This document shows positions 14,297 to 38,951 of a DNA stretch of 41,421 nt, one piece after another; position 1 is the first letter of the stretch, and each line of letters opens with the position of its first letter. The DNA is from a virus. The position numbers and the translations under genes are program-made. The DNA lies in IMG/VR virus record IMGVR_UViG_3300036851_000104, positions 1-41,421 of that record; one strand, given 5' to 3'. The notes under the pieces were generated by a model. The model worked only from the letters and a program-made list of their open reading frames with translations. It was not told where the DNA came from and made no database searches.

Positions 14297-14487
14297 AAGG
14301 AACATCGGATTACTGGCGAGGCATCTTCGTAGGCATAGTGCTCGGAGCAATCGTCTTCGGCTATGACCTCGGCTTCCTTGCCACCATCGGAGCAGGAGTC
14401 ATCGCTGGCTTCACAGTCAGCTTCACATTCAGCATGCTTGAGGAGGCAACCAGCTGGATGCGCAGACGGCTCAGTAGAAGTAGCTAG
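14293..14487 (+). CDS. Small membrane protein before the late region
   Basis: This is a 64-residue protein from ATG 14293. Two hydrophobic stretches (residues about 10-27 and 29-48) suggest two membrane passes, followed by a basic tail MRRRLSRSS. Its stop codon TAG (14485-14487) is the TAG of the first copy of the TAGCCGAAAA motif. Function is unknown. Confidence 0.6.
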   Translation: MKGTSDYWRGIFVGIVLGAIVFGYDLGFLATIGAGVIAGFTVSFTFSMLEEATSWMRRRLSRSS

Positions 14488-14494
14488 CCGAAAA
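14484..14494 (+). promoter_or_regulatory. Start-associated motif copy 1
   Basis: CTAGCCGAAAA. Its TAG is the stop codon of the 14293 gene. The ATG of the HNH gene lies 11 bases after the last A. Confidence 0.7.
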
Positions 14495-14504
14495 CCATGA
14501 GGCC

Positions 14505-14915
14505 ATGCAACGCCTCTGCCCAACCCACGGCCACTACACCGAAGCACGCTGCCCAGCCTGCCAACGCCAACGCAACAACGAGCCAGCCAAACAAGCACGC
14601 AGCACCCGCACCTACCAGCTAGCCAGAGCAGCAGCCAAACAACGCGACGGCCACACTTGCCAACGATGCGGTGCAGTAGACTGGTTATTCCAACCAACGG
14701 TCAACGATGGACGCGAATACAAGAAGCTTGAGGCTCATCACATCGACGGCAACCCACGCAACCACGCGCTCTCAAACCTGACAACACTCTGCGCTGATTG
14801 TCATGGCGATATTGATAGGGGGGCACCCGGCGCAACGCAAACTGTTGCGCAACCACCCCGCGCCAAGTTTTCACAAAAAAGAGTTCGCGAGCCTGATGAG
14901 CCCTCAGTCGCATGA
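14505..14915 (+). CDS. HNH endonuclease next to terminase
   Basis: This is a 136-residue protein from ATG 14505. An N-terminal CPTHGHY...CPAC zinc knuckle is followed by a canonical HNH nuclease: CQRCG, then EAHHIDGNPRNHALSNLTTLCADCH. Genes of this type beside TerL in cos-type HK97-like phages take part in cutting packaged DNA, so a packaging role is likely. The stop overlaps the TerL start. No separate small terminase was found beside it. Confidence 0.9.
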   Translation: MQRLCPTHGHYTEARCPACQRQRNNEPAKQARSTRTYQLARAAAKQRDGHTCQRCGAVDWLFQPTVNDGREYKKLEAHHIDGNPRNHALSNLTTLCADCHGDIDRGAPGATQTVAQPPRAKFSQKRVREPDEPSVA

Positions 14916-16399
14916 GGCCGTTTACGGTCGAGCATTTCGACGAGTGGACGCAGCGGCTGACGCTTGATACCGGCGAGCAGTGGCGGCCTGAGCCGTTCCA
15001 GCTGGCGTTCGTTGAGGATGTGTTCGCGGGCTACCGGGAATGCTGGCTTGTTGTCCCCCAGGGGAACGGGAAGACGACGCTGGTGGCCGGCTTGGCGCTC
15101 TATTACTTGGAGCATTACCCGGACGCGGCGATTCCGATTGCGGCTTCGGCGATCCCGCAGGCGAACACGTTGTATCTACAGGCGCAGGGGTTCGTTGTCC
15201 GTTCGGAGTGGATGTACGAGCTGGCGCCGGATTTGTTGGCGCGGGCGACGGGGAAGCGCAAGTTCGAGACGCCTCGGTTCGAGTGCCAACGGGGGTTCCG
15301 TCGGGTGCGGCACCACAAGGGCGGTTTCCTCGAGATCCGCGCCGCCGACGCGGGGACGGGCGACGGGATCATTCCGGGCGGGCTGGCGATCTGCGACGAA
15401 CTCCACCGTCACCGGAACCTCGAGCTATACAAAACCTGGAGCGGGAAGTTGCGGAAGCGCGGCGCGCAGATGATCGTGATCTCGACGGCCGGCGAGCCAG
15501 GGTCGGAGTTCGAGAACATGCGCGACGAGTTCCGCCGCCAGGGCGACGCTGTCCGTGAGGAGACATTCACGCGGTCGGCGAAGGAAGACTTGTCGGTGAT
15601 CCATGATTGGGCGGTCCCGGAGGATGGCGACGTGGATGATCTCGATCTGGTTGCGAGGGCGAACCCGTTTTCGGCGATGGATGTTGAGGCGTTGCGGGAG
15701 GAGCGCGAGTCGCCATCGTGGGAGTTCGGGCATTGGCGGCGGTTCAGTTGCAATCTGCCGACCCGCAGCGAGTTCGCGGCGATCACCGAGGCCGAGTGGT
15801 TCGGCGCCGAGGTCGATGACGAGATCCCGGAGGGCGAGCAGCTTGACGTTGGCGTTGATGTCGGCTGGAAGTACGACACGACCGGGATCCAGCCGCTCTG
15901 GATCCGCGACAGTTCCTATCGCCTGTTTGATCGCGGAGTGACGTTGACGCCGCCGAAGGACGGCGACTCACTGCACCCGGACGCGATCAAGCACGCGCTC
16001 GTCGAGATCAACGCGCGGAACCCGATTCGCCGGGTTGTCATGGACGTGTCGAACGCGCTCGATGTAGCGGCGTGGATCGAGGACGAGTTCGCCTGTGAGC
16101 TTGTCGATCGTGGGCAGACGAACAAGTTCCACTGTGAGGATTACGAGCGGTTCATGGAGGCGTTGCGGCAGGGATGGCTGAAGCATTCCGGGGATGAGGG
16201 ATTGACTCGGCATGTGTTGAATGCGATCGCGCGGCCGGCGACATATGGGGATCTGCGGTTTGACCGGCCGTCGAGCTCGCGGACGAACCAGGCGAAGCAG
16301 GATCTGCGGGTGATTGATCGTTTGACGGCGGCGGCGATGGTGCATACGTCTGCCGCGGTTGATTTGAAGCAGGGCGATGCGTCGTTCGCGTTGGCTTAG
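14912..16399 (+). CDS. terL: Large terminase subunit (TerL)
   Basis: This is a 495-residue packaging ATPase/nuclease. Residues 49-55 are PQGNGKT (Walker A), D162-E163 lie in LAICDELH (Walker B), and DVGVDVGWKYD near residue 312 begins the RNase-H-like nuclease domain that cuts the concatemer. Length and order fit HK97-type TerL. ATG 14912 overlaps the HNH stop by four bases. It pumps DNA into the prohead through the portal encoded immediately downstream. Identification is secure; the packaging strategy (cos or pac) is not visible. Confidence 0.95.
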   Translation: MRPFTVEHFDEWTQRLTLDTGEQWRPEPFQLAFVEDVFAGYRECWLVVPQGNGKTTLVAGLALYYLEHYPDAAIPIAASAIPQANTLYLQAQGFVVRSEWMYELAPDLLARATGKRKFETPRFECQRGFRRVRHHKGGFLEIRAADAGTGDGIIPGGLAICDELHRHRNLELYKTWSGKLRKRGAQMIVISTAGEPGSEFENMRDEFRRQGDAVREETFTRSAKEDLSVIHDWAVPEDGDVDDLDLVARANPFSAMDVEALREERESPSWEFGHWRRFSCNLPTRSEFAAITEAEWFGAEVDDEIPEGEQLDVGVDVGWKYDTTGIQPLWIRDSSYRLFDRGVTLTPPKDGDSLHPDAIKHALVEINARNPIRRVVMDVSNALDVAAWIEDEFACELVDRGQTNKFHCEDYERFMEALRQGWLKHSGDEGLTRHVLNAIARPATYGDLRFDRPSSSRTNQAKQDLRVIDRLTAAAMVHTSAAVDLKQGDASFALA

Positions 16400-16410
16400 T
16401 TAGCCGAAAA
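16400..16410 (+). promoter_or_regulatory. Start-associated motif copy 2
   Basis: TTAGCCGAAAA, one base different at the first position. It directly follows the TerL stop. It lies 6 bases before GTG 16416 or 12 before ATG 16422 of the portal gene. Confidence 0.65.
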
Positions 16411-16415
16411 CCCTT

Positions 16416-17762
16416 GTGGTTATGCGGCTCGGCCCGCTGAACATCGTCAACAGCCAACGCTTGCAGCGTTCTTCGCTGTCGCTTGACGAGTACGTCGAAT
16501 ATTTTACGTACTTGTCGCATCAGTATCCGCTGCTGGGCGGGGTGTCGTACCCGACCGAGAAGCTAGAGGAGATCGGCAGTGGCTTCCCTGGCTTGGTGCG
16601 TGGTGCGTACCAGGCGAATGGGGTTGTGTTTGCGTGTGTGCTGAAGCGGCTGCTGCTGTTCTCGGAGGCTAGGTTCCAGTTTCGGCAGCTTCGTTCCGGT
16701 CGGCCGGGTGAATTGTTTGGGAGGGAGTCGCTGCTGCCACTCGAGCAGCCTGAACCGGGGAAGACGACCGGTGATCTGCTGGCGCGGATGGAAGTGGACG
16801 TGTCGTTTGCCGGCAACTCGCTGATCGTCAGGCGTGGCAACAGGCTGAAGAGGCTGCGGCCGGATTGGGTCGGGATCGTCTTGGGCGGCGACGGGGAGAA
16901 CGACCCGGATGCCGAGGTGATTGGCTACCGCTATTGGCCCGGCGGTCCGCACTCGGGCGAAGAGCCGCAAAACTTTCTCCGCGAAGAGGTCGCTCACTAT
17001 GCGCCGATCCCCGACCCGCTCGCCCAATACCGGGGCATGTCATGGCTGACCCCGGTCGTCCGCGAAGTGATGGCCGACAGTGGCTGGCGCGACCACAAGA
17101 TCAAGTTTCTGGAGCATGGCGGCGTGCCGCCAGTGTTCTTCAAGGTCGACCCACAGTCGATGACCGAGGATCAACTCGTGGCGTTTGCGGATAAGTACCG
17201 TGCTGCCGCCGAAGGCGCCGGGAATGCATATCGCTCAATTTTCATGCGTGCTGCCATCGACCCGATCCCGCTCGGCGCCAACATCCAGCAGATGGACTTC
17301 AAGGTCGTACAGGGTGCCGGCGAAACCAGAATCGCGGCCGCGGCCGGGGTACCGCCGACGGTCGTCGGACTGAGCGAGGGATTGCAGGGCTCATCGTTGA
17401 ACGCCGGCAACTTTGGGGAGGCGATGCGGAACTTCGCCGACCTGACGATGCGGCCGTTGTGGCGGAACGCCGCCGGGTCTCTGTCAACGATCATCGACAT
17501 TCCTTCGGGCTCGGAGCTCTGGTACGACGACCGCGATATCCCCGCGTTGCAGGAAGATGTGAAAGAGGCGGCCGAAGTGCTCGAGTCAAACATGCGGTCA
17601 ATTAAGGCAGGTGCAGAGGCAGGCTTCGATACGGACTCGGTCGTCGATGCCGTCACAAGTGGTGATCTGAAGCGGCTGAAGCACACTGGGCTTCTCAGCG
17701 TGCAATTGCAGGAGCCCGGATCGCAGAACGGCAAGCCGACCGAGATCGAAGTTCCTAGCTAG
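16416..17762 (+). CDS. Portal protein
   Basis: This is a 448-residue dodecameric head vertex protein of the HK97/SPP1 portal superfamily. The pattern GFPGLVRGAYQANGVVFACVLKRLLLFSEARF near the N terminus, RGMSWLTPVVREV in the middle and the clip/stem region with GAGETRIAAAAGVPPTVVGLSEG match the family. GTG 16416 or ATG 16422 may be the start; neither has a Shine-Dalgarno sequence, and motif copy 2 lies just upstream. The stop codon TAG is part of motif copy 3. Confidence 0.93.
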   Translation: MVMRLGPLNIVNSQRLQRSSLSLDEYVEYFTYLSHQYPLLGGVSYPTEKLEEIGSGFPGLVRGAYQANGVVFACVLKRLLLFSEARFQFRQLRSGRPGELFGRESLLPLEQPEPGKTTGDLLARMEVDVSFAGNSLIVRRGNRLKRLRPDWVGIVLGGDGENDPDAEVIGYRYWPGGPHSGEEPQNFLREEVAHYAPIPDPLAQYRGMSWLTPVVREVMADSGWRDHKIKFLEHGGVPPVFFKVDPQSMTEDQLVAFADKYRAAAEGAGNAYRSIFMRAAIDPIPLGANIQQMDFKVVQGAGETRIAAAAGVPPTVVGLSEGLQGSSLNAGNFGEAMRNFADLTMRPLWRNAAGSLSTIIDIPSGSELWYDDRDIPALQEDVKEAAEVLESNMRSIKAGAEAGFDTDSVVDAVTSGDLKRLKHTGLLSVQLQEPGSQNGKPTEIEVPS

Positions 17763-17769
17763 CCGAAAA
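17759..17769 (+). promoter_or_regulatory. Start-associated motif copy 3
   Basis: CTAGCCGAAAA, preceded by CTAG as a near-duplicate. TAG is the portal stop codon. The next ATG is 8 bases after the last A, with no purine-rich ribosome site between. Confidence 0.75.
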
Positions 17770-17776
17770 CCTGCAC

Positions 17777-17971
17777 ATGCCGTATTCGGTGAGCAAGGAC
17801 GCCGAGGCATGTTCTACGAGCCGACCGTGGGCGGTCAAAAACTCCGAGACAGGGAAGCTCCATGGTTGCCACGCCTCCAAGCAGCAGGCGCAGAAGCAGC
17901 AGGCGGCGTTGTACGTGCATGTTCCTGAGGCAGCTAGCCGAAAACCTAGAGAGCAGCAGTGGAGACTCTGA
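17777..17971 (+). CDS. Small conserved phage protein, flanked by motifs
   Basis: This is a 64-residue protein from ATG 17777. PWAVKNSETGKLHGCHASKQQAQKQQAALY is a pattern I recognise from small proteins next to, or fused to, prohead proteases in actinobacterial phages. Motif copy 3 lies before it. Motif copy 4 lies inside its 3' end, where it is read as ASRKP, one base out of the frame in which its TAG would stop translation. The last ten residues may therefore be a read-through extension. Function is unknown. Confidence 0.75.
   Translation: MPYSVSKDAEACSTSRPWAVKNSETGKLHGCHASKQQAQKQQAALYVHVPEAASRKPREQQWRL
17934..17944 (+). promoter_or_regulatory. Start-associated motif copy 4 (inside coding sequence)
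   Basis: CTAGCCGAAAA. It is located inside the end of the 17777 gene. The next start downstream is GTG 17959, which opens a chain of tiny frames leading to the protease. Confidence 0.65.
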
Positions 17972-18044
17972 TGAGAAAGAAGGTGGTGAGGTTGGGATGA
18001 GCGTCGAGTTGTTCCGCGCACAGTGGACGGCGGCGTTCATTTGA
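17959..18044 (+). other. Two tiny overlapping leader frames before the protease
   Basis: GTG 17959 opens a 13-codon frame ending at 18000. ATG 17997 overlaps its stop and opens a 15-codon frame ending at 18044. TTG 18041 of the protease overlaps that stop. This is a chain of stop/start overlaps suited to translational coupling, but the peptides show no domain and may be chance frames. Confidence 0.4.
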
Positions 18045-19045
18045 GCGTGCTCAACGATCTCCCCGATTCCAGCTTCCTGCATGTCGAAGGCGGGGGCAAA
18101 AAGGACGAGGATGGAAAGACCGTCCCTCGCACCTTGCGTCATTTCCCGTACAAGGATGCGAACGGAAACGTTGATTTGCCGCACCTCAGGAACGCGCTCG
18201 CCCGGATCCCGCAGTCTAGTCTCGCGGCTGATTTGAAGAGCAGACTGACCTCCAAGGCGCAGGGCATCCTTGAGAAGCAGTCGGCCCGCAGCACCATTTT
18301 TACGGATTCGTTTGTGCGCGCGGCCAGTTTCGACTTCGACCTACAGCGGACCAAAGGTAATGGCAAGGCGATCATGTCCGGTCGCCTCGCCAGCTTCGGC
18401 GACTGGACGGAGATCGATTCTCCGTTCGAGGGTCATTTCATGGAACGGATCGCGCCGGGGGCTTTCGCAAAGACGATCCAAGAGAACGGGCAGAAGCTGA
18501 AGGTGCTGTTCCAGCATGGCCTCGATCCGGCGATCGGCAAAAAGCCGCTCGGGCGCATCCTTGATCTAGCCGAGGATGCTCAAGGCGTGCGCTACGAAGT
18601 CGAGTTGCTGGATGCGCCCTACGTCGATGATCTGATTCCCGGTCTTGAGGCTGGCCTCTATGGGACCTCGTTTCGGGCTCGGGACATCAAGAACGACGAG
18701 ACGCGCTGGCCGAAGCGCTCCGACTTCAACCCGAAGCGTCTGCCGGAAGTGACCCGGCTCGAATTGGAGATGAAGGAGTTCGGGCCAGTCACCTTTCCCG
18801 CCTACGCCGATACGACCGCGCGCATGCGTTCGATGACCGATGAGTTCATGTTGCCTGGGCTGCGCGAGTTGATCGCAGCGCTCAGGCCCGAAGATGTTGA
18901 ACGAGCCGCAGCACTCACCGAGCCGGAGCCGGAGCCGGAGGAAGAGACGCCGGAGTCCACTCCCGCACCAGAAGTGAGCCGCAGCACTCGGCCACGCCAC
19001 GACTACTTGGAAGGAAAGGAGGAGAAACCATCGTGGCATCTGTAG
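18041..19045 (+). CDS. Prohead (capsid maturation) protease
   Basis: This is about 334 residues. An N-terminal domain of about 80 residues (LPDSSFLHVEGGGKKDEDGK...LPHLRNALARIPQS) is of a type often fused to actinobacteriophage proteases. It precedes the HK97-family serine protease with SFGDWTEID, the catalytic His159 in FQHG and Ser210 in YGTSFR. It cleaves the capsid scaffold domain during maturation. The acidic Glu/Pro-rich tail is probably disordered. TTG 18041 is chosen because it overlaps the upstream stop; GTG 18023 and GTG 18047 in the same frame are alternatives. Confidence 0.9.
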   Translation: MSVLNDLPDSSFLHVEGGGKKDEDGKTVPRTLRHFPYKDANGNVDLPHLRNALARIPQSSLAADLKSRLTSKAQGILEKQSARSTIFTDSFVRAASFDFDLQRTKGNGKAIMSGRLASFGDWTEIDSPFEGHFMERIAPGAFAKTIQENGQKLKVLFQHGLDPAIGKKPLGRILDLAEDAQGVRYEVELLDAPYVDDLIPGLEAGLYGTSFRARDIKNDETRWPKRSDFNPKRLPEVTRLELEMKEFGPVTFPAYADTTARMRSMTDEFMLPGLRELIAALRPEDVERAAALTEPEPEPEEETPESTPAPEVSRSTRPRHDYLEGKEEKPSWHL

Positions 19046-20523
19046 AGAAAGAGACCGACGACAGCGGCGAGCGCTCTCGCTCAATTGAAGAACTCGACGC
19101 GGAGATCGAGCAGCGCAAGGAACGTCTGCGCCAGATCGACACGGAATACGTCGGCAAGCGGTTCTCGGCCGAGAGCAAAGACGAATGGAACAGGCTCAAT
19201 AGCGAGGTGGACGAACTCGAGGAAAGCAAGCGCGAGCTCGTCGTCCGCAGCGATCGGCTGCGCGTACTTGCCGAGAAGGACGAGCATGTCGAGAAGGTGG
19301 TCGATCCGTTCCAGGTGCAGAAGCCTCGCCCTGAGAACATCTTCGACCTCTCTTCGATCCGGCGTGACTTCAATGATCCCTCCGTCGAGGGGCGGGAGCT
19401 TCGCGACCGGGCGAAGATGCTGATCGAGCGGAGCCAGTTCCCGCACGAGCGGACCCGCCGCGAGGAGATCCAGGGGCATCTCGAGGTGCTGGTGGAAGGA
19501 GAGGAGAACGAGGCGCGGATTGCCCGTCACCTCATGTACACCGGCTCGCCGGAATACCGGCGTGCATTCACGAAGTATCTGGCGAACCAGCCGCGCTCGC
19601 CGCGGGAAGAGGACATGCTTCAGCGTGCCGCATCGCTGACGACCACAGCCGGCGGGTTCGCGGTCCCCTTCGTCTTGGATCCGAGCGTGATCCCAACCTC
19701 GAACGGAGCGATCAACCCATACCGCTCAGTTGCGAGTGTCGCTTCGATCAGCGTCGACGAATGGCGCGGTGTGAGCTCGGACGGGATCACGGCGGCGTTC
19801 CAGGCCGAGGCGGCAGCTGTTACCGATGCCGCCCCGACGCTGGCTCAGCCGACCGTCTCGACGGAGATGGCACGCGCGTTCGTGCCGTTCTCGATCGAGA
19901 TTGGGCAGGACTGGGGCAGCTTCGCCTCCGAGATGGCGGCGATGCTCTCCGATGCGAAGGACGTGCTTGAGGCGAGCAAGTTCGCGCTCGGCTCGGGCAC
20001 GAACGAGCCGTTCGGCGTGATCACCGGCGCAACGACCGTCTACACGGCGGCAAACAGCACTTCGCTGGTGGTCGCCGATGTCTACGGAGTACACAACGCG
20101 CTTCCGCCGCGGTTCCGCTCAAGGGCGAGCTGGACGTTGAACAACGCGACCGCCGATCGGATCCGCCAGCTTGATACGGCTGGCGGCGCGAACCTGTGGG
20201 TGCAGAACCTTCAGCTTCGCTCGGCGGCACAGGCGAGCACGATGACGGACGGCCGCATGGGAGCCGACCTGCTCGGCAAACCTGCCTACGAGGCAACCGC
20301 GCAGTCGGGAACGTTCACGACCGGCGAAAAGATCGGGGTGATCGGTGACTTCAACTATTACAAGATCATCGACCGGATCGGAATGACGATCGAAACGATC
20401 CCGCACATCTTCGGAGCCGCACAAGGCAATCTTCCGACAGGTCAGAGAGGCTTGTTTGCTTACTGGAGGGTGGGCGCAAAAGTGCTGCATGCCAATGCCT
20501 TCCGAGTCCTGAAGCTGGCCTGA
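19033..20523 (+). CDS. Major capsid protein, HK97 fold
   Basis: This is a 496-residue protein with an N-terminal, charged coiled-coil delta domain (residues about 10-110, e.g. SIEELDAEIEQRKERLRQID) serving as internal scaffold. It continues into the HK97 capsid domain starting near AASLTTTAGGFAVPFV, with SIEIGQDWGSFASEM and the GTNEPFGVITGA loop. The protease encoded upstream should remove the scaffold. GTG 19033 follows a strong GGAGG site and overlaps the protease end by 13 bases, so the two are co-translated. A perfect hairpin lies downstream. Confidence 0.95.
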   Translation: MASVEKETDDSGERSRSIEELDAEIEQRKERLRQIDTEYVGKRFSAESKDEWNRLNSEVDELEESKRELVVRSDRLRVLAEKDEHVEKVVDPFQVQKPRPENIFDLSSIRRDFNDPSVEGRELRDRAKMLIERSQFPHERTRREEIQGHLEVLVEGEENEARIARHLMYTGSPEYRRAFTKYLANQPRSPREEDMLQRAASLTTTAGGFAVPFVLDPSVIPTSNGAINPYRSVASVASISVDEWRGVSSDGITAAFQAEAAAVTDAAPTLAQPTVSTEMARAFVPFSIEIGQDWGSFASEMAAMLSDAKDVLEASKFALGSGTNEPFGVITGATTVYTAANSTSLVVADVYGVHNALPPRFRSRASWTLNNATADRIRQLDTAGGANLWVQNLQLRSAAQASTMTDGRMGADLLGKPAYEATAQSGTFTTGEKIGVIGDFNYYKIIDRIGMTIETIPHIFGAAQGNLPTGQRGLFAYWRVGAKVLHANAFRVLKLA

Positions 20524-20528
20524 TCGCG

Positions 20529-20699
20529 ATGGCAGAGAAGAAAGCCAAGCAGGAGGAGATTCCGCAGACACCTTCCGGGCTTGCGCTCGAGAAAGTGGGG
20601 AATCTCGACGGTGAGGATGTCAAGCCTGCCGACACCGAGAAGGCGCTTGAGCATGGCGAGGCATATCAGGCCGAGAAGAAGAAGCATCGCTGGGGCTAA
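20529..20699 (+). CDS. Small charged protein after capsid
   Basis: This is a 56-residue, Lys/Glu-rich protein from ATG 20529, five bases after the capsid stop. It is probably helical and disordered at its ends (EKKAKQEEIPQ). It could be a minor head or head-to-tail accessory protein, but no family is recognised. Confidence 0.6.
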   Translation: MAEKKAKQEEIPQTPSGLALEKVGNLDGEDVKPADTEKALEHGEAYQAEKKKHRWG

Positions 20700-20709
20700 C
20701 GGCGATGCA

Positions 20710-20742
20710 AGGGGAGCCAGTCCTCAGGGTGCTGGCTCCCCT
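20710..20742 (+). terminator. Hairpin downstream of capsid gene
   Basis: An 11-bp perfect stem (AGGGGAGCCAG and its complement at 20732-20742) with an 11-base loop. There is no T run after it, so it is a candidate attenuator or RNA-stabilising element and not a classical intrinsic terminator. It separates the strongly expressed capsid gene from later genes. Confidence 0.7.
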
Positions 20743-20763
20743 CAACCCTGAGAGGAGAAGCAA

Positions 20764-21060: not shown

Positions 21061-21065
21061 CCTCG

Positions 21066-21907: not shown

Positions 21908-22602
21908 CTACCCGGCAGTTCCCGAAGAAGAAACTTCGTGGCACAGTCGCGTTTTTCACTGGCGATCCCAGCATCCGCTTCAACGACTCCGTCCGCAGCT
22001 TCCAGGCAATGCTGTCGGAGATGCGAAACGACGACATCAGCGTCGGCATGTTCAGCGGCGTCAACGTCACCGGCAACCTCAACGAGGCTGTCGCGAAGAT
22101 GAAAGGCGACTGGCTCTGGCAGACCGCCGACGATCATGTCTGGGAACCGAACATCATCTATCGCCTCGAAGCCCACAACGTCGACATCGTTGCACCTCAC
22201 TGCCTGAAACGCACTCCAGGTTATGAGCCGGTCATCTATGGGAGCTCAAACGGCGATATTCACTCGCTTGCCCAAATCCCCAGAGAAGGACTGTTCGAAG
22301 TCCACGCCGCTGGTACAGCCGGAATGCTGATCCGCAAGCACGTCTTCGACGAAATCGGAGAGCCGTGGTTTGAGACCTACGGCAAGCAGAACGAGGACCT
22401 GATGTTCTGCCGCAAGCTCAGAGAGCATGGGTTCAAGATTTGGTGCGATCCGACGATCCTGCTCGGGCACATCGCCCTCACTTGCGTTTGGCCGACATGG
22501 ATCGAAGGCCGAGGCTGGGGCATTGACTTTGATCTTGGCGCTGGCGATGTAGAGCAGCGGGTAATCATGGGCCGGGTCGGGAACAGCTTGACGCCCAGCT
22601 AG
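21904..22602 (+). CDS. Glycosyltransferase-like protein 2 (GT2-like)
   Basis: This is a 232-residue protein from ATG 21904. WLWQTADDHVWEPNIIYRL contains a DxD-like Asp pair (ADDH), and EDLMFCRKLREHGFKIWCDPTILLGH matches the end of GT-A/GT2 domains. Together with protein 1 it probably forms a sugar-transfer pair for virion or phage-directed surface decoration. The stop TAG (22600-22602) is part of motif copy 5. Confidence 0.8.
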   Translation: MTTRQFPKKKLRGTVAFFTGDPSIRFNDSVRSFQAMLSEMRNDDISVGMFSGVNVTGNLNEAVAKMKGDWLWQTADDHVWEPNIIYRLEAHNVDIVAPHCLKRTPGYEPVIYGSSNGDIHSLAQIPREGLFEVHAAGTAGMLIRKHVFDEIGEPWFETYGKQNEDLMFCRKLREHGFKIWCDPTILLGHIALTCVWPTWIEGRGWGIDFDLGAGDVEQRVIMGRVGNSLTPS

Positions 22603-22609
22603 CCGAAAA
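22599..22609 (+). promoter_or_regulatory. Start-associated motif copy 5
   Basis: CTAGCCGAAAA. TAG is the stop of the glycosyltransferase gene. The ATG of the next gene lies 9 bases after the last A. A short AGGG lies between them. Confidence 0.75.
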
Positions 22610-23697: not shown

Positions 23698-23708
23698 CTA
23701 GCCGAAAA
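23698..23708 (+). promoter_or_regulatory. Start-associated motif copy 6
   Basis: CTAGCCGAAAA, with the preceding gene ending in TAG directly upstream. ATG 23717 lies 9 bases after the last A and has no ribosome site. Confidence 0.75.
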
Positions 23709-25775: not shown

Positions 25776-27065
25776 ATGCCCGGCTGCAAGGTCGGGATCA
25801 TCACCGCCCCGACAACTGATGGAGCAACCATCACCGAAACACTGCCCGCCGGGTTTCAGCTCAAGGCGCTGATGCTCGCAGCCTCATACAACACAGCCGA
25901 CGGCCACGTAGCAGGCCACGCCAGGTTCTCGTTCGGCATCGCCTCCCTCGACGGTGGCTCGATTCAACAGGGTGGACAGCTGATCCACCAAGACGACGGC
26001 ACCGCCTCCTCGCAAACAGCGAATGGCGTCTTCACGACCGCAACGCTGAGGCAGAACCTGAACGGCACGACCACGACCTCCGAGATGGAAGTCGACGTGA
26101 CCGACATGCAGAGCGAGCAATTCACGCTCACGTTCACGACTGCGCCAGCCTCGGCGATCAAGCTCATCTACATGGCGTTCCAGGTCGCCAAAGCCCGCGT
26201 CGTCCCGAAGACGCACACGACGACATCGCCGGAAACTATCGAGGCTCCAGCTGGTTGGGGTCAGCCGGACCTCGTACTCGGAACACACGGCGGCGCGCAG
26301 CTCAACGGCTTCTCCGACTCGTCGCTGACGAACGCGCATATGCCGTTGGGCGTCGCCGTTTCGGATACGGTCAGGCAATGCTCGCTGTTCGCGATGCGCG
26401 ACGCGCAGACCGCCTCTAACTCTGCCCGCTGGCAGAAGCAGCGGTTCATGCTCGGCTCATCGAACAATGCAATGACCTACGAGGCCGACCTGGACATACA
26501 GGCGAACTGGCCCGCCGACGGAATCCAGATCGTCAAGCCCGACCTGAACCCGAACGGAATGGGCGGCGTCTACCTGTTCATCCAAGACCCTGATCTACAA
26601 GTCGCGATGGGCGTGGGGACGATCCGCACCACAGTCGGCGACACCGACCACGCGGCCGGGTTTGCACCCGCTGGCGCCTTGGTGTTCGGTAGCAACATCG
26701 CCGCCAGCACCACGCTCGGTGCTGCGGACGCGGACGGCTACGAGTTCCAGATCGGGATGACCGACGGGGTCACCGATTGCATGGTCGGCATCCTCGACGA
26801 CGACGCCGCGCTCGACATGAATACGCATACGCTGTTCCACTCAACGAAAGGGCTTCGCTACTACACGCCAGTCACGCCGACCTTGGTGTCCGAAGCCGAC
26901 CTATCGTTCAGCGGCAACAACCTGCGTGTCTCAACGACGGATGCGGATACGGTTGCCCGCGAATACGTCTGGGTCGTCATCGGCCCACCACCTGCTGCGC
27001 CGGTCGTGAACCCACCGAGACCGACAATCGTGGCTGACGCGGTAATGAGGTCGTACACGCGATGA
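25776..27065 (+). CDS. Large strand-rich virion-type protein
   Basis: This is a 429-residue protein from ATG 25776. Almost entirely beta-rich, with repeated strand patterns and few cysteines, it looks like a virion surface or receptor-type protein, perhaps two similar halves. It overlaps the repeat protein by four bases, so the two are probably made together. No enzyme motif was seen. Confidence 0.7.
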   Translation: MPGCKVGIITAPTTDGATITETLPAGFQLKALMLAASYNTADGHVAGHARFSFGIASLDGGSIQQGGQLIHQDDGTASSQTANGVFTTATLRQNLNGTTTTSEMEVDVTDMQSEQFTLTFTTAPASAIKLIYMAFQVAKARVVPKTHTTTSPETIEAPAGWGQPDLVLGTHGGAQLNGFSDSSLTNAHMPLGVAVSDTVRQCSLFAMRDAQTASNSARWQKQRFMLGSSNNAMTYEADLDIQANWPADGIQIVKPDLNPNGMGGVYLFIQDPDLQVAMGVGTIRTTVGDTDHAAGFAPAGALVFGSNIAASTTLGAADADGYEFQIGMTDGVTDCMVGILDDDAALDMNTHTLFHSTKGLRYYTPVTPTLVSEADLSFSGNNLRVSTTDADTVAREYVWVVIGPPPAAPVVNPPRPTIVADAVMRSYTR

Positions 27066-28129
27066 GACGCCTCGGCCGTTCCCAGCGATTCAGACCGATC
27101 ATCCTCCACGGCTTTGTCGGCGGACCGCAGACCGTCACGCTCATCCCGGCCGTTGAGACCGACGCGGCTCAGCCGATCTCCTTCACCAAGCCGATCCTGA
27201 AAACGCTCAGTGTCGCGGCAGAAACCGATGCCGCCCAAACACTCAACATCGACAAACAAAAGACGCTGGCAGTAGCCGTTGAAACCGACGCCGCGCAGTC
27301 CCTCAACATCAACAAATCCATCACCATCACGGCCGCTGTTGAAACCGACGCGGCGCAGACGCTGTCGATCACCCACCCGGTCATCCGAACGTTGACGCCA
27401 GCAGTCGAAACGGACGCCTCTCAACCACTCGACATCGACAAGCAGAAGACACTCGCCGCTGCCAGCGAAACCAACGAAGCCCAGCAGCTCAACATTGATA
27501 AAGCCAAGAACCTCTCTGCCGCAGCCGAGACAGACGCATCGCAACAATTGAGCTTCGTCAAACCGATCGTCAAGACGCTCACCGCCGCGACGGAGATCGA
27601 TAGCGCTCAGACATTGAGCATTGGCGGGCCAAAAACACTCACTCCCGCCACCGAAACAGACACCGCCCAGCCGCTCAGCTACGTCAAGCCGATCCGCAAG
27701 ACGCTGACGGCTGCGATCCAAACCGAAACCGCCCAGCAAGTCTCGATCGCCAAGGCGAGGACATTGGCTGTCGCGCTCGAGGCGAATGCGGCGCAGGCGC
27801 TGACGAAGCGCAAGTTCAAGACGCTCACGCCTGCGACCGAAACAGATGTCGCTCAGCCGCTCGCAATTCCGCAACGGAAGACGCTGACGCCGGCGACAGA
27901 GCTCGATGTCGCAATTGCGCTGAACGTCACCGGGCAGGTGATCCCCGGCGTTGTTGCCGTCACGAACGGCGGTGTCTCTGCCGTCACGGCAGGCATCGCC
28001 GTTGGGGCCACCGTGAGCGCCGTAGACGCGACGGGAGCAGTAGCCGCAGCCTCGGCATCATCCAACGGCACCGTGTCCGCAGAGGCCATTACAGGCGCCG
28101 ATGTGGCCGTAGTCGACACTCTCAGCTAG
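27062..28129 (+). CDS. Repeat protein (ETDAAQ repeats)
   Basis: This is a 355-residue protein made of about 13 units of roughly 19-23 residues with the pattern TLTPATETDxAQPL-IxK, from about residue 22 to 295. An Ala/Val/Gly-rich tail follows. Similar tandem units occur in minor structural proteins of actinobacterial phages. It could be an extended fibre or surface decoration. The codons within the repeats vary, so the units are not recent duplications. The stop TAG belongs to motif copy 7. Confidence 0.78.
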   Translation: MRRLGRSQRFRPIILHGFVGGPQTVTLIPAVETDAAQPISFTKPILKTLSVAAETDAAQTLNIDKQKTLAVAVETDAAQSLNINKSITITAAVETDAAQTLSITHPVIRTLTPAVETDASQPLDIDKQKTLAAASETNEAQQLNIDKAKNLSAAAETDASQQLSFVKPIVKTLTAATEIDSAQTLSIGGPKTLTPATETDTAQPLSYVKPIRKTLTAAIQTETAQQVSIAKARTLAVALEANAAQALTKRKFKTLTPATETDVAQPLAIPQRKTLTPATELDVAIALNVTGQVIPGVVAVTNGGVSAVTAGIAVGATVSAVDATGAVAAASASSNGTVSAEAITGADVAVVDTLS

Positions 28130-28136
28130 CCGAAAA
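28126..28136 (+). promoter_or_regulatory. Start-associated motif copy 7
   Basis: CTAGCCGAAAA. TAG is the stop of the repeat-protein gene. GTG 28144 lies 8 bases after the last A, with no ribosome site. Confidence 0.75.
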
Positions 28137-30711: not shown

Positions 30712-31167
30712 TCAGCGCCTGTACGACGACTCTAGGCTTCGCTCAAGCCGATACTCGACTTCAGCATTGAATGAGCGGCCATTTTCCTTACCCGCTACTC
30801 GAAGTCGATCTTTCAAATCTGGATCGATGCGAAGATTGATAGCAACGATTGAACGGCCACGTTTCTTGATCGGAGTATGAGGCACACCACGATGTCCGAG
30901 GTCGCCTTCGGATAGGTGACGTCGGAGATGGGCAGCGCTAGATGCGAAAACTTCAAGGTTCCCAAAGCTGTCATCGCTGGGATCGCCATTGCGATGGTGG
31001 ACTATTTCGCTTTCGGTCAAGGTGCGCCCTAGCTTGATTGCTGCGATGAGACGAGCACGATTGGTTGATCCGCCGCCTTGGAACCACACTCGCCAGCGAT
31101 CATCGCCAAGTTTCCGAACGGCCTTTATACATCGGATTGGATCGGGATCAAGCTCTGAAAATCGCAT
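30712..31167 (-). CDS. HNH endonuclease fused to Arc-type DNA-binding domain
   Basis: This is a 151-residue protein read right to left from ATG 31167. The HNH core is IVHHRNGDPSDDSFGNLE with a further H (SAAHLRRH). Residues from about 106 (SIVAINLRIDPDLKDRL...ENGRSFNAEVEYRLERSL) match the Arc/ribbon-helix-helix fold. It lies on the opposite strand between two tail genes and is less GC-rich than its neighbours, as expected of a mobile homing gene. A ribosome site AGGA lies within an inverted repeat at the start, so self-repression is plausible. Confidence 0.85.
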   Translation of the reverse strand: MRFSELDPDPIRCIKAVRKLGDDRWRVWFQGGGSTNRARLIAAIKLGRTLTESEIVHHRNGDPSDDSFGNLEVFASSAAHLRRHLSEGDLGHRGVPHTPIKKRGRSIVAINLRIDPDLKDRLRVAGKENGRSFNAEVEYRLERSLESSYRR

Positions 31168-31231: not shown

Positions 31232-31254
31232 CTAGCCGAGCCACTAGCCGAAAA
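31232..31254 (+). promoter_or_regulatory. Start-associated motif copy 8 with a partial duplicate
   Basis: CTAGCCGA (31232-31239) followed by the full CTAGCCGAAAA (31244-31254). ATG 31262 of the tail-tube gene lies 8 bases after the last A. This is the only place with a partial second copy. Confidence 0.75.
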
Positions 31255-32314: not shown

Positions 32315-32467
32315 ATGCCTGACAAGGATGAGAGCAAAGAGGCTGTGAAGGTTGAGGCTCCGGTGGAAGTGAAGGTTGCGGAGCGGAAGTCGGCGTCGAA
32401 GCCGATTGTGGCTGCTGATGGGCATGTGGTGTTGAGCCAGGAGGACATCAATGCCCGCGACTCCTAA
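32315..32467 (+). CDS. Small charged tail-region protein
   Basis: This is a 50-residue, Lys/Glu/Val-rich protein from ATG 32315, which follows an AGGAGGG ribosome site. It overlaps the chaperone gene by 17 bases. It may be a small tail accessory. Function is unknown. Confidence 0.55.
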   Translation: MPDKDESKEAVKVEAPVEVKVAERKSASKPIVAADGHVVLSQEDINARDS

Positions 32468-32900
32468 TCAGGTTCAGCGGCAGAAGATCGTTTCGCACAC
32501 GGTCGATTTCGGCGACGGGGTCACGGTCGACTTCTCGTTTGATCGCAACAAGATCACAGACGCTTGGTTTGACCGCTGGGGGCAGCTGGAGAAGGAGCGG
32601 AGTTCCGGCGCGCTTAACGTCGTCCTCCATGACCTGTTGTTGGGCTGGGACATGGTCAACGACGATGGATCGCCATATCCCTTGACGCCTGAGAATTTGC
32701 GGATCTTCAGCATTCCTGACAAGGGTCTGATCGTCGAGGAGTTGATGAGGGCTGCGGTGCCGCAGAGGGCTGAGGGGGAAGGCTCAAGCGCTATCTCGTC
32801 TACTCCCAGCACGCCCTCTATGGAGCAGCCGGCGAGCCACCCGAATGGGCCGCAGCCTTCCCTGTCGCCCGCACCCTCGGAATCCCCGTCCCTGAAGTAG
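32451..32900 (+). CDS. Tail assembly chaperone, short (G-type) product
   Basis: This is a 149-residue protein from ATG 32451. Its position between tail tube and tape measure and the size match the lambda gpG family, which coats the tape measure during tail building. After a GGGGGAA stretch at 32774-32780 the frame ends in low-complexity Ser/Pro. A -1 shift there gives the longer G-T type product of 180 residues. Confidence 0.85.
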   Translation: MPATPNQVQRQKIVSHTVDFGDGVTVDFSFDRNKITDAWFDRWGQLEKERSSGALNVVLHDLLLGWDMVNDDGSPYPLTPENLRIFSIPDKGLIVEELMRAAVPQRAEGEGSSAISSTPSTPSMEQPASHPNGPQPSLSPAPSESPSLK

Positions 32901-32992
32901 AAGCCGTGCCGCTCTTCTGGGTGGTAGCGGCGCAGATGTGGAACGAGGCGGAGGCGGCGGCGCAGAAGGCCGCTGAGGCGAGGCGCAACTAA
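32451..32992 (+). CDS. Tail assembly chaperone, frameshifted (G-T type) product
   Basis: A -1 shift at G GGG GAA (32774-32780) takes ribosomes from the G frame into a frame reading RYLVYSQHALYGAAGEPPEW...MWNEAEAAAQKAAEARRN, which ends at TAA 32990-32992, one base before the tape measure ATG. The -1 frame has a stop at 32771-32773, just before the slippery run, so the shift must happen after it. The total is 180 residues. Such fusions are conserved in siphovirus tails and set the G to G-T ratio. Confidence 0.78.
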
Positions 32993-35431: not shown

Positions 35432-36033
35432 TGGCGAAGTACACGCCGCAGACGTGGACTGATGGTGTTTCGAGCGCGTCGGCTGCGCGGATGACCGTGA
35501 TCGAGAACGGTATCCGCGAGGCGTCAATGGGCCGCTCAACGACGTTCCCCACCAGCCCGGTCGATGGTGATATCCATGTTTACCCGGCGGATACAACGAA
35601 CGGTGTGATGTGGATGTTCATGTATCGGTCTGTGCCGAACGATTGGGAATTCATTGGTGGGTCGCCGCTATTTGCCGAAGTGACGACAGATGAAAGTACG
35701 ACTTCTACATCTTATGCGGCCTTGGCTACCGCAGGTCCATCAATTGCACTGCCGTTTGTGGGAGATTATATGGTGGAAATTGGCTGTCACTCATATAACA
35801 GTGGTTCCGCGCAGAATTCCATGAGTTATGACATAGGAGCAACAGCCGCTGCCGATGTTGACCGAGTCCTTCCGCAAGTGAGTGCAGGAGGGCAAATCTA
35901 TGTAGCTTCACGGCCTAGAAGAAAGACAGGGCTAACGGCCGTCACGCTAACAGCCAAATACAAAACTAGTGCCGGTACGGCTCAATTCCTGAATCGCTGG
36001 ATGCGGGTTGTACCCATCCGCCATACCCCATAA
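35431..36033 (+). CDS. Tail protein, tip or fibre-like
   Basis: This is a 200-residue protein from ATG 35431, whose start overlaps the tape measure stop. The N-terminal half resembles tail-fibre attachment segments (YTPQTWTDGVSSASAARMTVIENGIREA, a pattern common in phage tail fibres). The C-terminal half is beta-rich. From about 35650 the base composition is distinctly less GC-rich, which suggests recent exchange of the receptor-contacting part. Confidence 0.72.
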   Translation: MAKYTPQTWTDGVSSASAARMTVIENGIREASMGRSTTFPTSPVDGDIHVYPADTTNGVMWMFMYRSVPNDWEFIGGSPLFAEVTTDESTTSTSYAALATAGPSIALPFVGDYMVEIGCHSYNSGSAQNSMSYDIGATAAADVDRVLPQVSAGGQIYVASRPRRKTGLTAVTLTAKYKTSAGTAQFLNRWMRVVPIRHTP

Positions 36034-37896
36034 ATGGCAACAGTCGGAACGAAACTGACGATTCCGTTTACGGTCGGGGCATCACAGATCGTCGGGCAAG
36101 GAAATCACCCAGAATTATGGGTGCTCTACTCGATCGATGACGCGTCCGACACAGATCCGCTTTGGCAAGATGCAACATCCAAGATCCGCGCATGGGCCAC
36201 GTCACGCGGCCGTAATACCGAGCTTGAGGAAATCGATGCTGGCACTGCCACGATCACGCTCGATAACCGCACGCGAACCTTCGATCCTGTAGCGAACACG
36301 GCGATCCGACCAATGAACCGCTGGTGGATTCGCGAGCAGTTCAGCGGAGAAACCCAAGACATGTTTAAGGGGTATGCCGATTCATACGATCAACAATGGC
36401 CAGCTCCAGTCGGCGATGCGCTCGCGGTGGTCTCATGTACCGATGAGTTCAAAGTGCTGGCACTAGACAGGTTGCCGACAACTGACCCTCCAAGGGATAA
36501 CTACGCAGATATGGTCATGTTCGATCAGCCGACAGGCTACTGGCGCATGAACGATGATGCCGAAACATTGCAGGCAGCCTCGACGATAGGGCCGTCGCTG
36601 GCGGCACCAGTTAGCGGTGTGAGCCAAGACACCGATTCAGCAATTATCGGCGACCCTGGTTCGGCATTACAAACAAGCGGCACAGAATATCTATTCCATA
36701 CTGTCGAAGCTGGTGATACAGGCGATGTGGCTGGCTTGGGAGAGTTCACCGTCGAGACATGGTTCATGAACGATTCGAACGCCTACCCGGCCGCGACGAC
36801 CGACATCATCACTGGGCCCACACAAGGCGGAGGGCAAATCACCTATCAGCTTCGTCATCTCTCGTCAGGGGTTCTCGAGATCGCAGCCCGTAACTCTGGC
36901 GGCTCGACCATAACCGCTACGTCATCCTCAATCATCTTGCAACAGTGGCATCACGTCGTTGGGACCATAACTGGCGGTAGTCTGCGTCTATATCTCAACG
37001 GTGCGCAGGTTGCCGCAAACGCATGGACTGGAACATTCGGAGCTGTTGATGCCGGCAGCCAATTCATTGTTGGCGATAATGGTGGAACAAGCGTCACCAT
37101 TGGGCATGATGAGGTTGCGTTCTATCGTTATGGATTGAGCGCATCCCGAATTACCGCGCACTACGTCGCTGGGACACAGCGCGGTTTTCAAACTCAACAA
37201 TCTGGGGCACGCATCGGAGCGATCCTTGATGCCATCGACTCGCAAGCATCCCGGAGACTCGATGCGGGCGTTCGAACTATTTTCCCACGCTACATGATTG
37301 GGCAAGACGCGCTCGGAGAGATTCGTATGGCACTTCGATCCGATGACCCGGACTCTGTGTTGTTCGCAGCGAAGGACGGAACGCTCGTCTATCTCGATAA
37401 TGACCATCGTTCCTCCAGTCCCTATAACACGATCCAACTGACGTTCGACGATGATGGAACAGACCTTCCCTATACCGAGATTGATCTTGATTACAGCGAG
37501 GCGTTCCTTGTAAATGACTGGAATGTCACTCGCACGGGCGGGTTGGTACAGACAGCTTCAGATGCTACGTCAATCAGCAGATATTTCAAACGGTCACAGT
37601 CGATCACTGATCTTCCTGTTACCAGCGATGCTGAGTCTTTGTCGGTTGCAAATGCGATGCTCGCAAAATACAAGGATCCAATGATCCGCATTACATCTTT
37701 GACAGTTACTACGCAACTACCGGACCTGGCGGAAGCGATTTTTCGCCGTGACATCGGAGACCGTATCCGTATTCTCCGTACACCGCCTGGTGGTGGCGCG
37801 AGGATCGACCAGACATCTTTCATCCAGAAGATTGACGCTAGCGGCTCAAACGATGGACAACCGTGGAAGTTTGTTTTCTCGGTGTCGCCGCTGTGA
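36034..37896 (+). CDS. Tail tip/fibre protein with a lectin-like domain
   Basis: This is a 620-residue protein from ATG 36034, adjacent to the previous stop. An N-terminal tail-tip part to about residue 165 precedes a concanavalin/LamG-like insertion (about 165-390: YWRMNDDAETL, FTVETWFMND, QQWHHVVGTITGGSLRLYLNG, DEVAFYRYGLSASRI). The remainder returns to a tip-type fold (RIRILRTPPGGGARIDQT). It probably binds host surface carbohydrate. The gene is less GC-rich than the rest of the genome, as with the fibre gene upstream. Confidence 0.8.
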   Translation: MATVGTKLTIPFTVGASQIVGQGNHPELWVLYSIDDASDTDPLWQDATSKIRAWATSRGRNTELEEIDAGTATITLDNRTRTFDPVANTAIRPMNRWWIREQFSGETQDMFKGYADSYDQQWPAPVGDALAVVSCTDEFKVLALDRLPTTDPPRDNYADMVMFDQPTGYWRMNDDAETLQAASTIGPSLAAPVSGVSQDTDSAIIGDPGSALQTSGTEYLFHTVEAGDTGDVAGLGEFTVETWFMNDSNAYPAATTDIITGPTQGGGQITYQLRHLSSGVLEIAARNSGGSTITATSSSIILQQWHHVVGTITGGSLRLYLNGAQVAANAWTGTFGAVDAGSQFIVGDNGGTSVTIGHDEVAFYRYGLSASRITAHYVAGTQRGFQTQQSGARIGAILDAIDSQASRRLDAGVRTIFPRYMIGQDALGEIRMALRSDDPDSVLFAAKDGTLVYLDNDHRSSSPYNTIQLTFDDDGTDLPYTEIDLDYSEAFLVNDWNVTRTGGLVQTASDATSISRYFKRSQSITDLPVTSDAESLSVANAMLAKYKDPMIRITSLTVTTQLPDLAEAIFRRDIGDRIRILRTPPGGGARIDQTSFIQKIDASGSNDGQPWKFVFSVSPL

Positions 37897-37899
37897 AGT

Positions 37900-37944
37900 G
37901 GCCCGCCCGGTAAGGAGGGGTTTAGTCACCTAACAAGGCGGGCC
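37900..37944. terminator. Stem-loop element B, possible bidirectional terminator
   Basis: GGCCCGCC (37900-37907) pairs with GGCGGGCC (37937-37944) across a 29-base interval, with an inner near-perfect stem (GTAAGG with CCTAAC). It lies between convergent genes: the tail protein ending at 37896 and the reverse gene whose stop begins at 37946. It resembles element A. There is no T run. Confidence 0.62.
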
Positions 37945-38246
37945 TAAGCGAGAGTGTAAACCAGCCGCACTTTCGAGCAGGAGTCGCGGACGTTCGCGAC
38001 ACGCCAGCGCATCCGCTTCCCAGGACCTCTCGCAAGCAGCGACACAGCTACCCCGCGCCCATACCACTCCGCGTAGTCACGGCCGTTCCGGGAACCCGAC
38101 AACTCGCCGCCGTTCGCGAACACGCGCAACCGCTTCACTTTCGCGCTGACCGGGCGCGTCCAGAACGTCTCTCGCTCGCAGACGGTGGCGTTAATCGACT
38201 CACCGCCGGAAGCGAATGCCAATGCCGTGAAGGCGAGGGCGAGCAT
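37944..38246 (-). CDS. Reverse-strand small secreted-type protein
   Basis: This is a 100-residue protein from ATG 38246. Residues 1-13 (LALAFTALAFAS) form a short hydrophobic start compatible with a signal peptide, and the protein has two Cys that could bond. It is Arg-rich and strand-rich. No ribosome site was seen and no family is recognised, but the full-length frame opposite to an empty + strand supports it. It could be a lysogeny-expressed gene. Confidence 0.5.
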   Translation of the reverse strand: MLALAFTALAFASGGESINATVCERETFWTRPVSAKVKRLRVFANGGELSGSRNGRDYAEWYGRGVAVSLLARGPGKRMRWRVANVRDSCSKVRLVYTLA

Positions 38247-38259
38247 TGGTGGAGAGTAC

Positions 38260-38270
38260 CTAGCCGAAAA
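38260..38270 (+). promoter_or_regulatory. Start-associated motif copy 9
   Basis: CTAGCCGAAAA, the last copy, before the endolysin gene. GTG 38280 lies 10 bases after the last A. No ribosome site precedes it. Confidence 0.75.
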
Positions 38271-38279
38271 CCGAAGCTA

Positions 38280-38951
38280 GTGAAACTTGTCTCGCGTCAA
38301 GCATGGGGCGCGCGGGCGTCGAAGTCGGTGACGCCGCTGCCGAACCCGGACGAGCTCGTGTTCCACTACAGCGCCGCGAACGCGGACGAGCAGGCCGCTC
38401 ACGCTAATTGCGCCGCCCGCGTTCGCGGCATCCAACGCTACCACCAAGACACGCAAGGCTGGCAGGACATCGCCTACAGCTTCCTCGCCTGCAAGCACGG
38501 GTACATCTTTGAGGGACGCGGCTGGAACGTGAAGTCGGCGGCCACGGGCACGGCAAACAGCCACACGATCGCCTGCTGCTTCCTCGGCGACGACACCGCC
38601 AACCGCGACGACCTCACCGGCGCCGGCCGCCAAGCGCTCCTCGACATCGCCAAAGCAGCGTTCGCAACTGAAGGAATCAAAAAATTCAGCGGTCACCGCG
38701 ACCACATGTCGACGAAATGCCCCGGCGACGAAATCCACCGGTACGTGACCTCAGCGTCGTTCAAGCGCAACGCGACCACGACCAGCAGCCCGAAGCCGAA
38801 GCGGACCGCCTACGACGTCAGGGTCTTCAACGACAAGGGTGAACTGATTAAGCGCTGGCCCCGTTCGCTCGAGCCGGGCAACCAGCTCGTCAAGTTCGGG
38901 GTGTCGAAGAACAAGCCGAAGCGAATCACGATCGACCGGGTCGACCCGTGA
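38280..38951 (+). CDS. N-acetylmuramoyl-L-alanine amidase endolysin
   Basis: This is a 223-residue protein. The amidase_2/PGRP fold has zinc ligands H29 (FHYSA), H139 (SGHRDH) and C147 (KCPGD). It cuts the bond between muramic acid and the peptide stem. A C-terminal basic domain of about 60 residues (SSPKPKRTAYDVRVFNDKGE) may bind the cell wall. GTG 38280 is preceded by motif copy 9 and no ribosome site. Membrane-protein genes follow at once, forming a lysis cassette. Confidence 0.93.
   Translation: MKLVSRQAWGARASKSVTPLPNPDELVFHYSAANADEQAAHANCAARVRGIQRYHQDTQGWQDIAYSFLACKHGYIFEGRGWNVKSAATGTANSHTIACCFLGDDTANRDDLTGAGRQALLDIAKAAFATEGIKKFSGHRDHMSTKCPGDEIHRYVTSASFKRNATTTSSPKPKRTAYDVRVFNDKGELIKRWPRSLEPGNQLVKFGVSKNKPKRITIDRVDP

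What the first reader, a model, noticed from the sequence alone, without database searches (positions are those of the whole stretch)
14484..38280. Nine copies of a start-associated motif TAGCCGAAAA in the late region
An invariant TAGCCGAAAA, usually GCTAGCCGAAAACC, occurs at 14485, 16401, 17760, 17935, 22600, 23699, 28127, 31245 and 38261, always on the + strand and only in the late region. Eight copies end 6-12 bases before a start codon, and most of those genes have no purine-rich ribosome site. In four copies the TAG is itself the stop of the upstream gene. It cannot pair with the anti-Shine-Dalgarno end of 16S rRNA. Genes with good ribosome sites in the same region (e.g. 19033, 20764, 24997, 32315) lack it. 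It resembles in principle the start-associated sequences described in some mycobacteriophages, but the sequence is different. It could guide translation initiation, mark transcript ends, or be a promoter or recombination junction.
Basis: partly seen in the sequence, partly recalled or inferred. Interest (0 to 1): 0.85.

Follow-up and report, generated by a model that had tools for sequence, protein, structure and literature searches.

The report
Start motif replacing phage ribosome sites
A complete soil-phage genome carries nine identical copies of a short sequence placed just before its structural genes, where the usual ribosome-binding sequence would be but is missing; related phages carry diverged versions at matching gene starts, so it is probably an unusual "start here" signal for making proteins.

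Summary
In detail: nine exact TAGCCGAAAA copies, all +, 0.04 expected. The window is a complete phage. Its closest relative, G001, has eight copies, all at the same junctions, even where neighbouring genes are non-homologous. L072 and L108 carry TAGCCGATAA, and near-complete G019 carries CCGATAGG, at orthologous portal, protease, adaptor or post-g21904 junctions. Of 25 TAGCCGAWAA sites, 20 have ATG/GTG opening >=60 aa 5-10 nt downstream, mostly 7-8 (null 6.8%). Across 72 relatives CCGATAG ranks first of 11,832 7-mers for start association, above every Shine-Dalgarno (SD) 7-mer. The eight motif genes lack anti-SD pairing; most other free-standing late genes have strong SDs. No upstream -35-like block, 16S complement or phage antisense was found. 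Best reading: a lineage-specific Start-Associated Sequence that, unlike the two published ones, has lost the SD and serves structural genes. Its role in translation is inferred, not shown; a -10-only late promoter is the main rival. New variant of a known kind.

The parts
14485..14494 (+). motif copy 1; TAG = stop of 14293-14487; ATG of HNH gene (14505) at +10 (another ATG at +2); not present in G001, whose sequence differs here
16401..16410 (+). motif copy 2; directly after terminase large subunit; portal GTG (16416) at +5 (ATG at +11); also in G001; variants at portal start of L072, L108, G019 and others
17760..17769 (+). motif copy 3; TAG = portal stop; ATG of small gene 17777 at +7; also in G001
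17935..17944 (+). motif copy 4; no start of a long frame at +5..+10 in the window (exception), but G001 has ATG of a 266-aa protease frame at +7, and L072/L108 protease starts carry the TAGCCGATAA variant
22600..22609 (+). motif copy 5; TAG = stop of g21904; ATG of 22618 at +8; a copy follows the g21904 ortholog in G001, G019, L072 and L108 too, although the next genes differ
23699..23708 (+). motif copy 6; ATG of 23717 at +8; in G001 same motif but non-homologous downstream gene
28127..28136 (+). motif copy 7; TAG = stop of 27062-28129; GTG of head-tail-adaptor-like gene 28144 at +7; conserved in G001 and, as TAGCCGATAA, in L072 (44% aa identity)
31245..31254 (+). motif copy 8; ATG of 31262 (329 aa, no family hit) at +7; partial extra copy TAGCCGA at 31233-31239; G001 has a copy here with non-homologous upstream flank
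38261..38270 (+). motif copy 9; GTG of amidase endolysin 38280 at +9; in G001 the orthologous frame has only ATC, at +7, where the start should be
16416..17762 (+). portal protein gene (motif gene, no SD)
19033..20523 (+). major capsid protein gene: strong SD (-16.3), no motif (contrast)

Best explanation
The motif is a cis-acting translation-start signal, an SD-less, lineage-specific Start-Associated Sequence. It lies in the mRNA of late genes where the SD would lie (core end 7-8 nt before the start codon) and replaces the SD for those genes; free-standing late genes without it mostly use ordinary strong SDs. Because the sequence is invariant inside one genome but differs between genomes (CCGAAAA, CCGATAA, CCGATAGG), it is probably read by a trans-acting factor, phage or host, that co-evolves with it; the A-rich tail may help 30S loading. 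Often it also holds the upstream stop codon, giving a compact stop-signal-start joint. Shown: repeat, strand, spacing, lack of SD, conservation at orthologous starts, continuum of variants. Inferred: that it acts in translation and that a factor reads it.
For: Nine copies vs 0.04 expected. Eight copies at the same junctions in G001 with 10/10 identity, including four junctions where one or both flanks are not homologous. TAGCCGATAA at portal, protease and adaptor starts of L072/L108 at +7, although these proteins are only about 39-50% identical to the window's. 20 of 25 sites have ATG/GTG opening >=60 aa at +5..+10 vs 6.8% at random positions (P 2e-19); ordinary stops at the same offset 4 of 92. 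CCGATAG rank 1 of 11,832 7-mers for a start 13-17 nt on: 23/29 vs background 0.13; CCGATA[AG] 28/43 on the gene strand vs 4/31 on the other. G019: 10 copies of CCGATAGG[CT] on the gene strand, 9 followed by ATG/GTG at 14-16 nt. Anti-SD energy -2.0 for all 8 motif genes; free-standing late genes: weak SD 8/8 with motif vs 2/7 without, Fisher P 0.007. Strong SDs on MCP show the host anti-SD is ordinary. Some relatives have CCGATAGGAGC, which contains an SD, at protease starts, so the element sits in the RBS register. In G001 the endolysin frame has no ATG/GTG/TTG, only ATC at motif +7.
Against: No expression data exist. Five of 25 sites lack a usual start of a long frame at +5..+10 (W 17935; G001 27521 and 35309; L072 5837 and L108 7668, where a strong SD and ATG follow 26 nt on). 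No reader factor identified; no 16S or phage antisense complement beyond chance. No better accessibility than random sequence: mean unpaired 0.50 vs 0.45. The link to published SAS is by intermediates in sequence and position, not by proven descent.
Confidence: 0.6

Rival explanations
1. A -10-only late promoter read by a phage or alternative sigma factor (as T4 late promoters need no -35): each copy starts a leaderless or near-leaderless mRNA at the start codon, which would also explain missing SDs.
For: 7 nt from a -10 box to the start codon is about the leaderless distance (own knowledge). GCCGATAA in L072/L108 equals the sigma-28-class -10 consensus (own knowledge). An HTH protein weakly like sigma-70 region 4, below the Pfam cut-off, is encoded at 13952-14296 just before the late genes and is kept in G001. 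Two copies (31245, 38261) follow gaps without a + strand gene ending at the motif.
Against: No conserved block 10-20 bases upstream in W or G001. Spacing to the start varies 5-10 nt (14-17 from CCGA in the wider family), loose for leaderless starts. Most copies lie inside a tight operon, overlapping the upstream stop. Family members with CCGATAGGAGC carry an SD, pointless in a promoter. Neighbouring genes use strong SDs.
Confidence: 0.2
2. A DNA-binding site such as cluster A stoperators: a repressor binds the copies to silence late transcription in the lysogen.
For: Short, asymmetric, one orientation, at gene junctions; an integrase-like gene (5078-6133) suggests a temperate phage.
Against: Tight link to the start codon and SD register, mutual exclusion with SDs, none in the early region, where silencing is expected.
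Confidence: 0.08
3. An RNA element other than a ribosome signal: processing, stabilising or coupling site tied to the upstream stop codon.
For: TAG is the upstream stop at four W copies; the copy after g21904 stays with the upstream gene in five genomes while the next gene changes; L072/L108 copies there precede a separate SD start.
Against: Other copies stay with the downstream gene while the upstream flank changes (31245, 38261) and there the TAG closes frames of only 3 and 10 codons; start spacing is tighter than this would need.
Confidence: 0.08
4. A short shared boundary sequence kept because it serves homologous recombination between modules, or a duplication relic.
For: Flanking genes are swapped around the motif at several junctions.
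Against: 10-15 bases is short for homology; position relative to starts is constrained; variants differ consistently between genomes; CCGATAG enrichment is start-specific over 72 relatives.
Confidence: 0.04

Closest known systems
Start-Associated Sequences of cluster K mycobacteriophages, GGGATAGGAGCCC (PMC3203893)
   Same: Short asymmetric repeat, 11-19 copies there, one orientation, 3-7 bp before start codons, in the RBS position, sometimes containing the upstream stop codon; function unknown, translation proposed. My control scan finds 9 GGATAGGAG sites in the right part of TM4, all with ATG/GTG 13-19 nt on.
   Different: Theirs contain AGGAG and pair with 16S (-9.4 vs -2.0 here); restricted to non-structural genes, mostly with >50 bp gaps; about half have upstream inverted repeats (ESAS). 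Ours has no SD, serves structural/lysis genes mostly in tight junctions, no upstream conserved block.
SAS of Microbacterium cluster EF phages, GGGAAAGGACCCC (PMC7302621)
   Same: About ten copies in the RBS position, unusually conserved, function unknown.
   Different: Contains an SD-like AAAGGA (-10.1) and linked ESAS; different consensus.
Stoperators of cluster A mycobacteriophages (described in PMC3203893 and PMC4351075)
   Same: Short asymmetric repeats in one orientation along the transcription direction.
   Different: Transcription-silencing DNA sites, not locked to start codons.
Shine-Dalgarno ribosome-binding site
   Same: Position about 7-8 nt before the start codon.
   Different: No pairing with the anti-SD beyond GAAA/UUUC; invariant 10-15 bases rather than a degenerate purine run.

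Membership tests
Start-Associated Sequence (SAS) | Highly conserved short asymmetric repeat, many copies per genome | tested here: met
   9 invariant copies, 0.04 expected; 8 in G001
Start-Associated Sequence (SAS) | One orientation, matching gene direction | tested here: met
   All + in W, all gene-strand in G001, L072, L108, G019
Start-Associated Sequence (SAS) | Within a few nt of start codons, in RBS position | tested here: met
   20/25 at +5..+10, mostly +7/+8
Start-Associated Sequence (SAS) | Contains SD core pairing with 16S 3' end | tested here: not met
   -2.0 kcal/mol in W; -0.5 for TAGCCGATAAGC; met only by CCGATAGGAGC relatives, -8.8
Start-Associated Sequence (SAS) | Published consensus GGGATAGGAGCCC or GGGAAAGGACCCC | tested here: not met
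   W motif differs; intermediates bridge it at orthologous starts
Start-Associated Sequence (SAS) | In non-structural genes with >50 bp upstream gaps (cluster K) | tested here: not met
   Portal, adaptor, endolysin and other late genes; stop-to-start gaps 14-22 bp in six cases
Start-Associated Sequence (SAS) | ESAS inverted repeats upstream of about half | tested here: not met
   No conserved block upstream of about -4
Start-Associated Sequence (SAS) | Role in translation initiation | not testable with these tools
   Unproven for published SAS too (PMC3203893)
Sigma-28-type or other two-box promoter | -35 element 13-19 bases upstream | tested here: not met
   No TAAA or other shared block
Stoperator | Bound by phage repressor | not testable with these tools
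   No repressor identified
Stoperator | Not tied to start codons | tested here: not met
   Start-locked spacing
rRNA-pairing enhancer (non-SD) | Complement in 16S beyond chance | tested here: not met
   Longest exact complement in E. coli 16S 6 nt, best duplex weaker than shuffles; host 16S unknown

The most novel reading that the evidence does not exclude
A phage clade has evolved an SD-independent, sequence-specific translation-start signal for its structural genes, read by a dedicated trans factor that co-evolves with the motif (series CCGATAGGAG, CCGATAGGC, CCGATAAGC, CCGAAAACC), so that a late-gene set is controlled at the ribosome and can even use a non-standard ATC start.
Probability: 0.33. 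Interest if true: 0.88.

Novelty: new variant of a known kind. Interest (0 to 1): 0.62.

Why it matters
Start-Associated Sequences have been unexplained since 2011 partly because the published ones contain an SD, so their conservation could not be separated from ordinary ribosome binding. Here the SD is gone while the non-pairing part (CCGA) is kept, and intermediates show the path. That makes the open question testable: something other than the anti-SD must read this sequence. If translational, it would be a sequence-specific, SD-free way to start a set of genes.

Tried and rejected
G012's repeat GTAGGAGGACTGCCA lies in a tandem-repeat stretch, not at starts. Other viral contigs with a single GCTAGCCGAAAACC or CTAGCCGATAAGCC hit carry no series of copies and were treated as chance. 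Terminase vs genome contigs: nothing; capsid alignment: only four weak loci (47% in a Gemmatimonadaceae MAG, 33-34% in Streptomyces and Microbacterium), so no host. Related isolated phages (Eyre, Brujita, REQ1, prophiGD02-2) lack the motif in the stretches fetched. Search for a protein present only in motif-bearing near-complete genomes gave one weak candidate, 10332-10670 (G001 84%, G019 41%), no family hit. 16S rRNA of three actinobacterial genomes was not found in the held copies, so E. coli 16S was used. mRNA accessibility: no signal. Megablast vs phages: no match. Rfam: none.

Full report
1. What the window is. The window is a whole virus record of 41,421 bases with a 127-base terminal direct repeat, so most likely a complete genome assembled as a circle. 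Nearly all genes run on +. It encodes an integrase-like protein, exonuclease and HNH enzymes early, then HNH, terminase, portal, protease, capsid, adaptor, tape measure and amidase endolysin. Capsid, portal and terminase are distantly related to those of actinobacterial siphophages; the host is not known.

2. The observation. TAGCCGAAAA occurs nine times, only on +, only from 14485 on; 0.04 expected. There are no + strand copies with one mismatch. The conserved block is A-x-C-TAGCCGAAAA-x-C, with nothing conserved further upstream. Start codons lie 10, 5, 7, -, 8, 8, 7, 7 and 9 nt after the core. TAG is the upstream stop at four copies.

3. The close relative. G001 (IMGVR_UViG_3300036851_000152, 42,474 bases, also with a 127-base terminal repeat) has eight copies, all on the gene strand, at the same junctions as eight of the nine here. 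The core is identical in all eight pairs. At 23699 and 17935 the upstream side is alike and the downstream sequence differs; at 31245 and 38261 the upstream side differs. The motif is therefore kept while its neighbours are exchanged.

4. Diverged relatives. L072 and L108 (portal 46-50% identical to the window's) carry TAGCCGATAA four and three times, all on the gene strand, at the portal and protease starts (+7) and, in L072, at the adaptor start (+7). The copy after the g21904 ortholog occurs in W, G001, L072, L108 and, as CCGATAGGC, in G019. In L072/L108 that copy is followed by a separate strong SD and ATG 26 nt on, an exception. A portal search gave about 75 relatives; many have CCGATAGGC, TCCGATAAGC or CCGATAGGAGC before the portal or protease start. 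Over 72 non-redundant relatives CCGATAG is the most start-associated of 11,832 7-mers (23 of 29; background 0.13), ahead of SD 7-mers. G019 repeats the window's pattern with its own sequence: ten CCGATAGG[CT] on the gene strand, nine followed by ATG/GTG at 14-16 nt, and two other-strand CCGATA[AG] hits without a start.

5. Relation to Shine-Dalgarno. Predicted pairing with the anti-SD is -2.0 kcal/mol for all eight motif genes, weaker than random positions (-3.7). Free-standing late genes without the motif mostly have strong SDs (-8 to -16). Two do not (18023, 29215), and their starts are uncertain. Fisher P 0.007. The capsid gene has an SD in the window and in most relatives, so the host's anti-SD is ordinary. 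Pairing falls along the series: GGGAUAGGAGCCC -9.4, UCCGAUAGGAGC -8.8, UCCGAUAGGCGC -4.3, CUAGCCGAUAAGC -0.5, CUAGCCGAAAACC -2.0. The CCGA part is what stays.

6. Alternatives tested. No -35-like block. No complement in E. coli 16S beyond shuffles, and no complement of 10 nt or more elsewhere in the two phages. No unusual accessibility. The start-locked spacing argues against stoperators. The spread of spacing (5-10 nt) and the SD-bearing family members argue against a leaderless promoter, but without transcript ends this rival stays open; an HTH protein with weak sigma region 4 likeness lies just before the late genes.

7. Two odd starts. In G001 the endolysin frame has no ATG, GTG or TTG; the codon aligned with the window's first codon is ATC, at motif +7. 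The G001 ortholog of 31262 likewise lacks a usual start: the aligned first codon is ATT, behind a GGAGGTGA, downstream of an ATG at motif +7 that opens only a short frame (read from the sequence). Assembly errors cannot be ruled out.

8. Placement. It works like, and probably is, a Start-Associated Sequence in the sense of Pope et al. 2011 (PMC3203893) by repeat, orientation and position, but fails features of the published ones: SD content, consensus, non-structural genes with wide gaps, and ESAS. I therefore do not file it as a plain member but as a variant. I found no paper describing an SD-less SAS or CCGATAGG (held library only). Verdict: new variant of a known kind, with a natural series of variants for finding what reads it.

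Noticed in passing
8615-9372: A second repeated start-associated element, TTCACAGAGAGGAGC (copies at 8616, 8697, 8870, 9133, 9351, the first less complete), in the early region; it contains a strong SD and in several copies also encodes an upstream C-terminus ending HREEQQR or similar, so it may stem from duplicated small genes.
   Followed up: partly
30712-31167 (-): Minus-strand frame of 151 aa with HNH_3 and ribbon-helix-helix (Arc-like) matches, a likely homing endonuclease gene, between 30706 and the motif at 31245; a partial motif TAGCCGA lies at 31233-31239.
   Followed up: partly
G001 (IMGVR_UViG_3300036851_000152), reverse complement about 35326 and 27565: Endolysin and the 31262 ortholog lack ATG/GTG/TTG at the conserved start; ATC and ATT stand there.
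   Followed up: partly
window ends 1-127 and 41295-41421: 127-base terminal direct repeats in the window, G001 and G010: circular complete assemblies.
   Followed up: yes
13952-14296: Small HTH protein with sub-threshold sigma-70 region 4 and T5 D5-like matches, just before the late genes, kept in G001 (81% aa) and G002 (35%); terminase small subunit or late regulator.
   Followed up: partly
10332-10670: 112-aa frame found in the motif-bearing genomes G001 (84%) and G019 (41%) but not in G010-G012; no family hit; weak candidate for a motif-reading factor.
   Followed up: partly
L095 (G012) about 17209-17932: Six copies of GTAGGAGGACTGCCA inside a tandem-repeat stretch, not start-associated.
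   Followed up: partly
L023, L028, L059: Three low-GC contigs carry one TAGCCGAAAA 9 nt before the ATG of a 469-aa terminase-like frame; probably chance but conserved among them.
   Followed up: no
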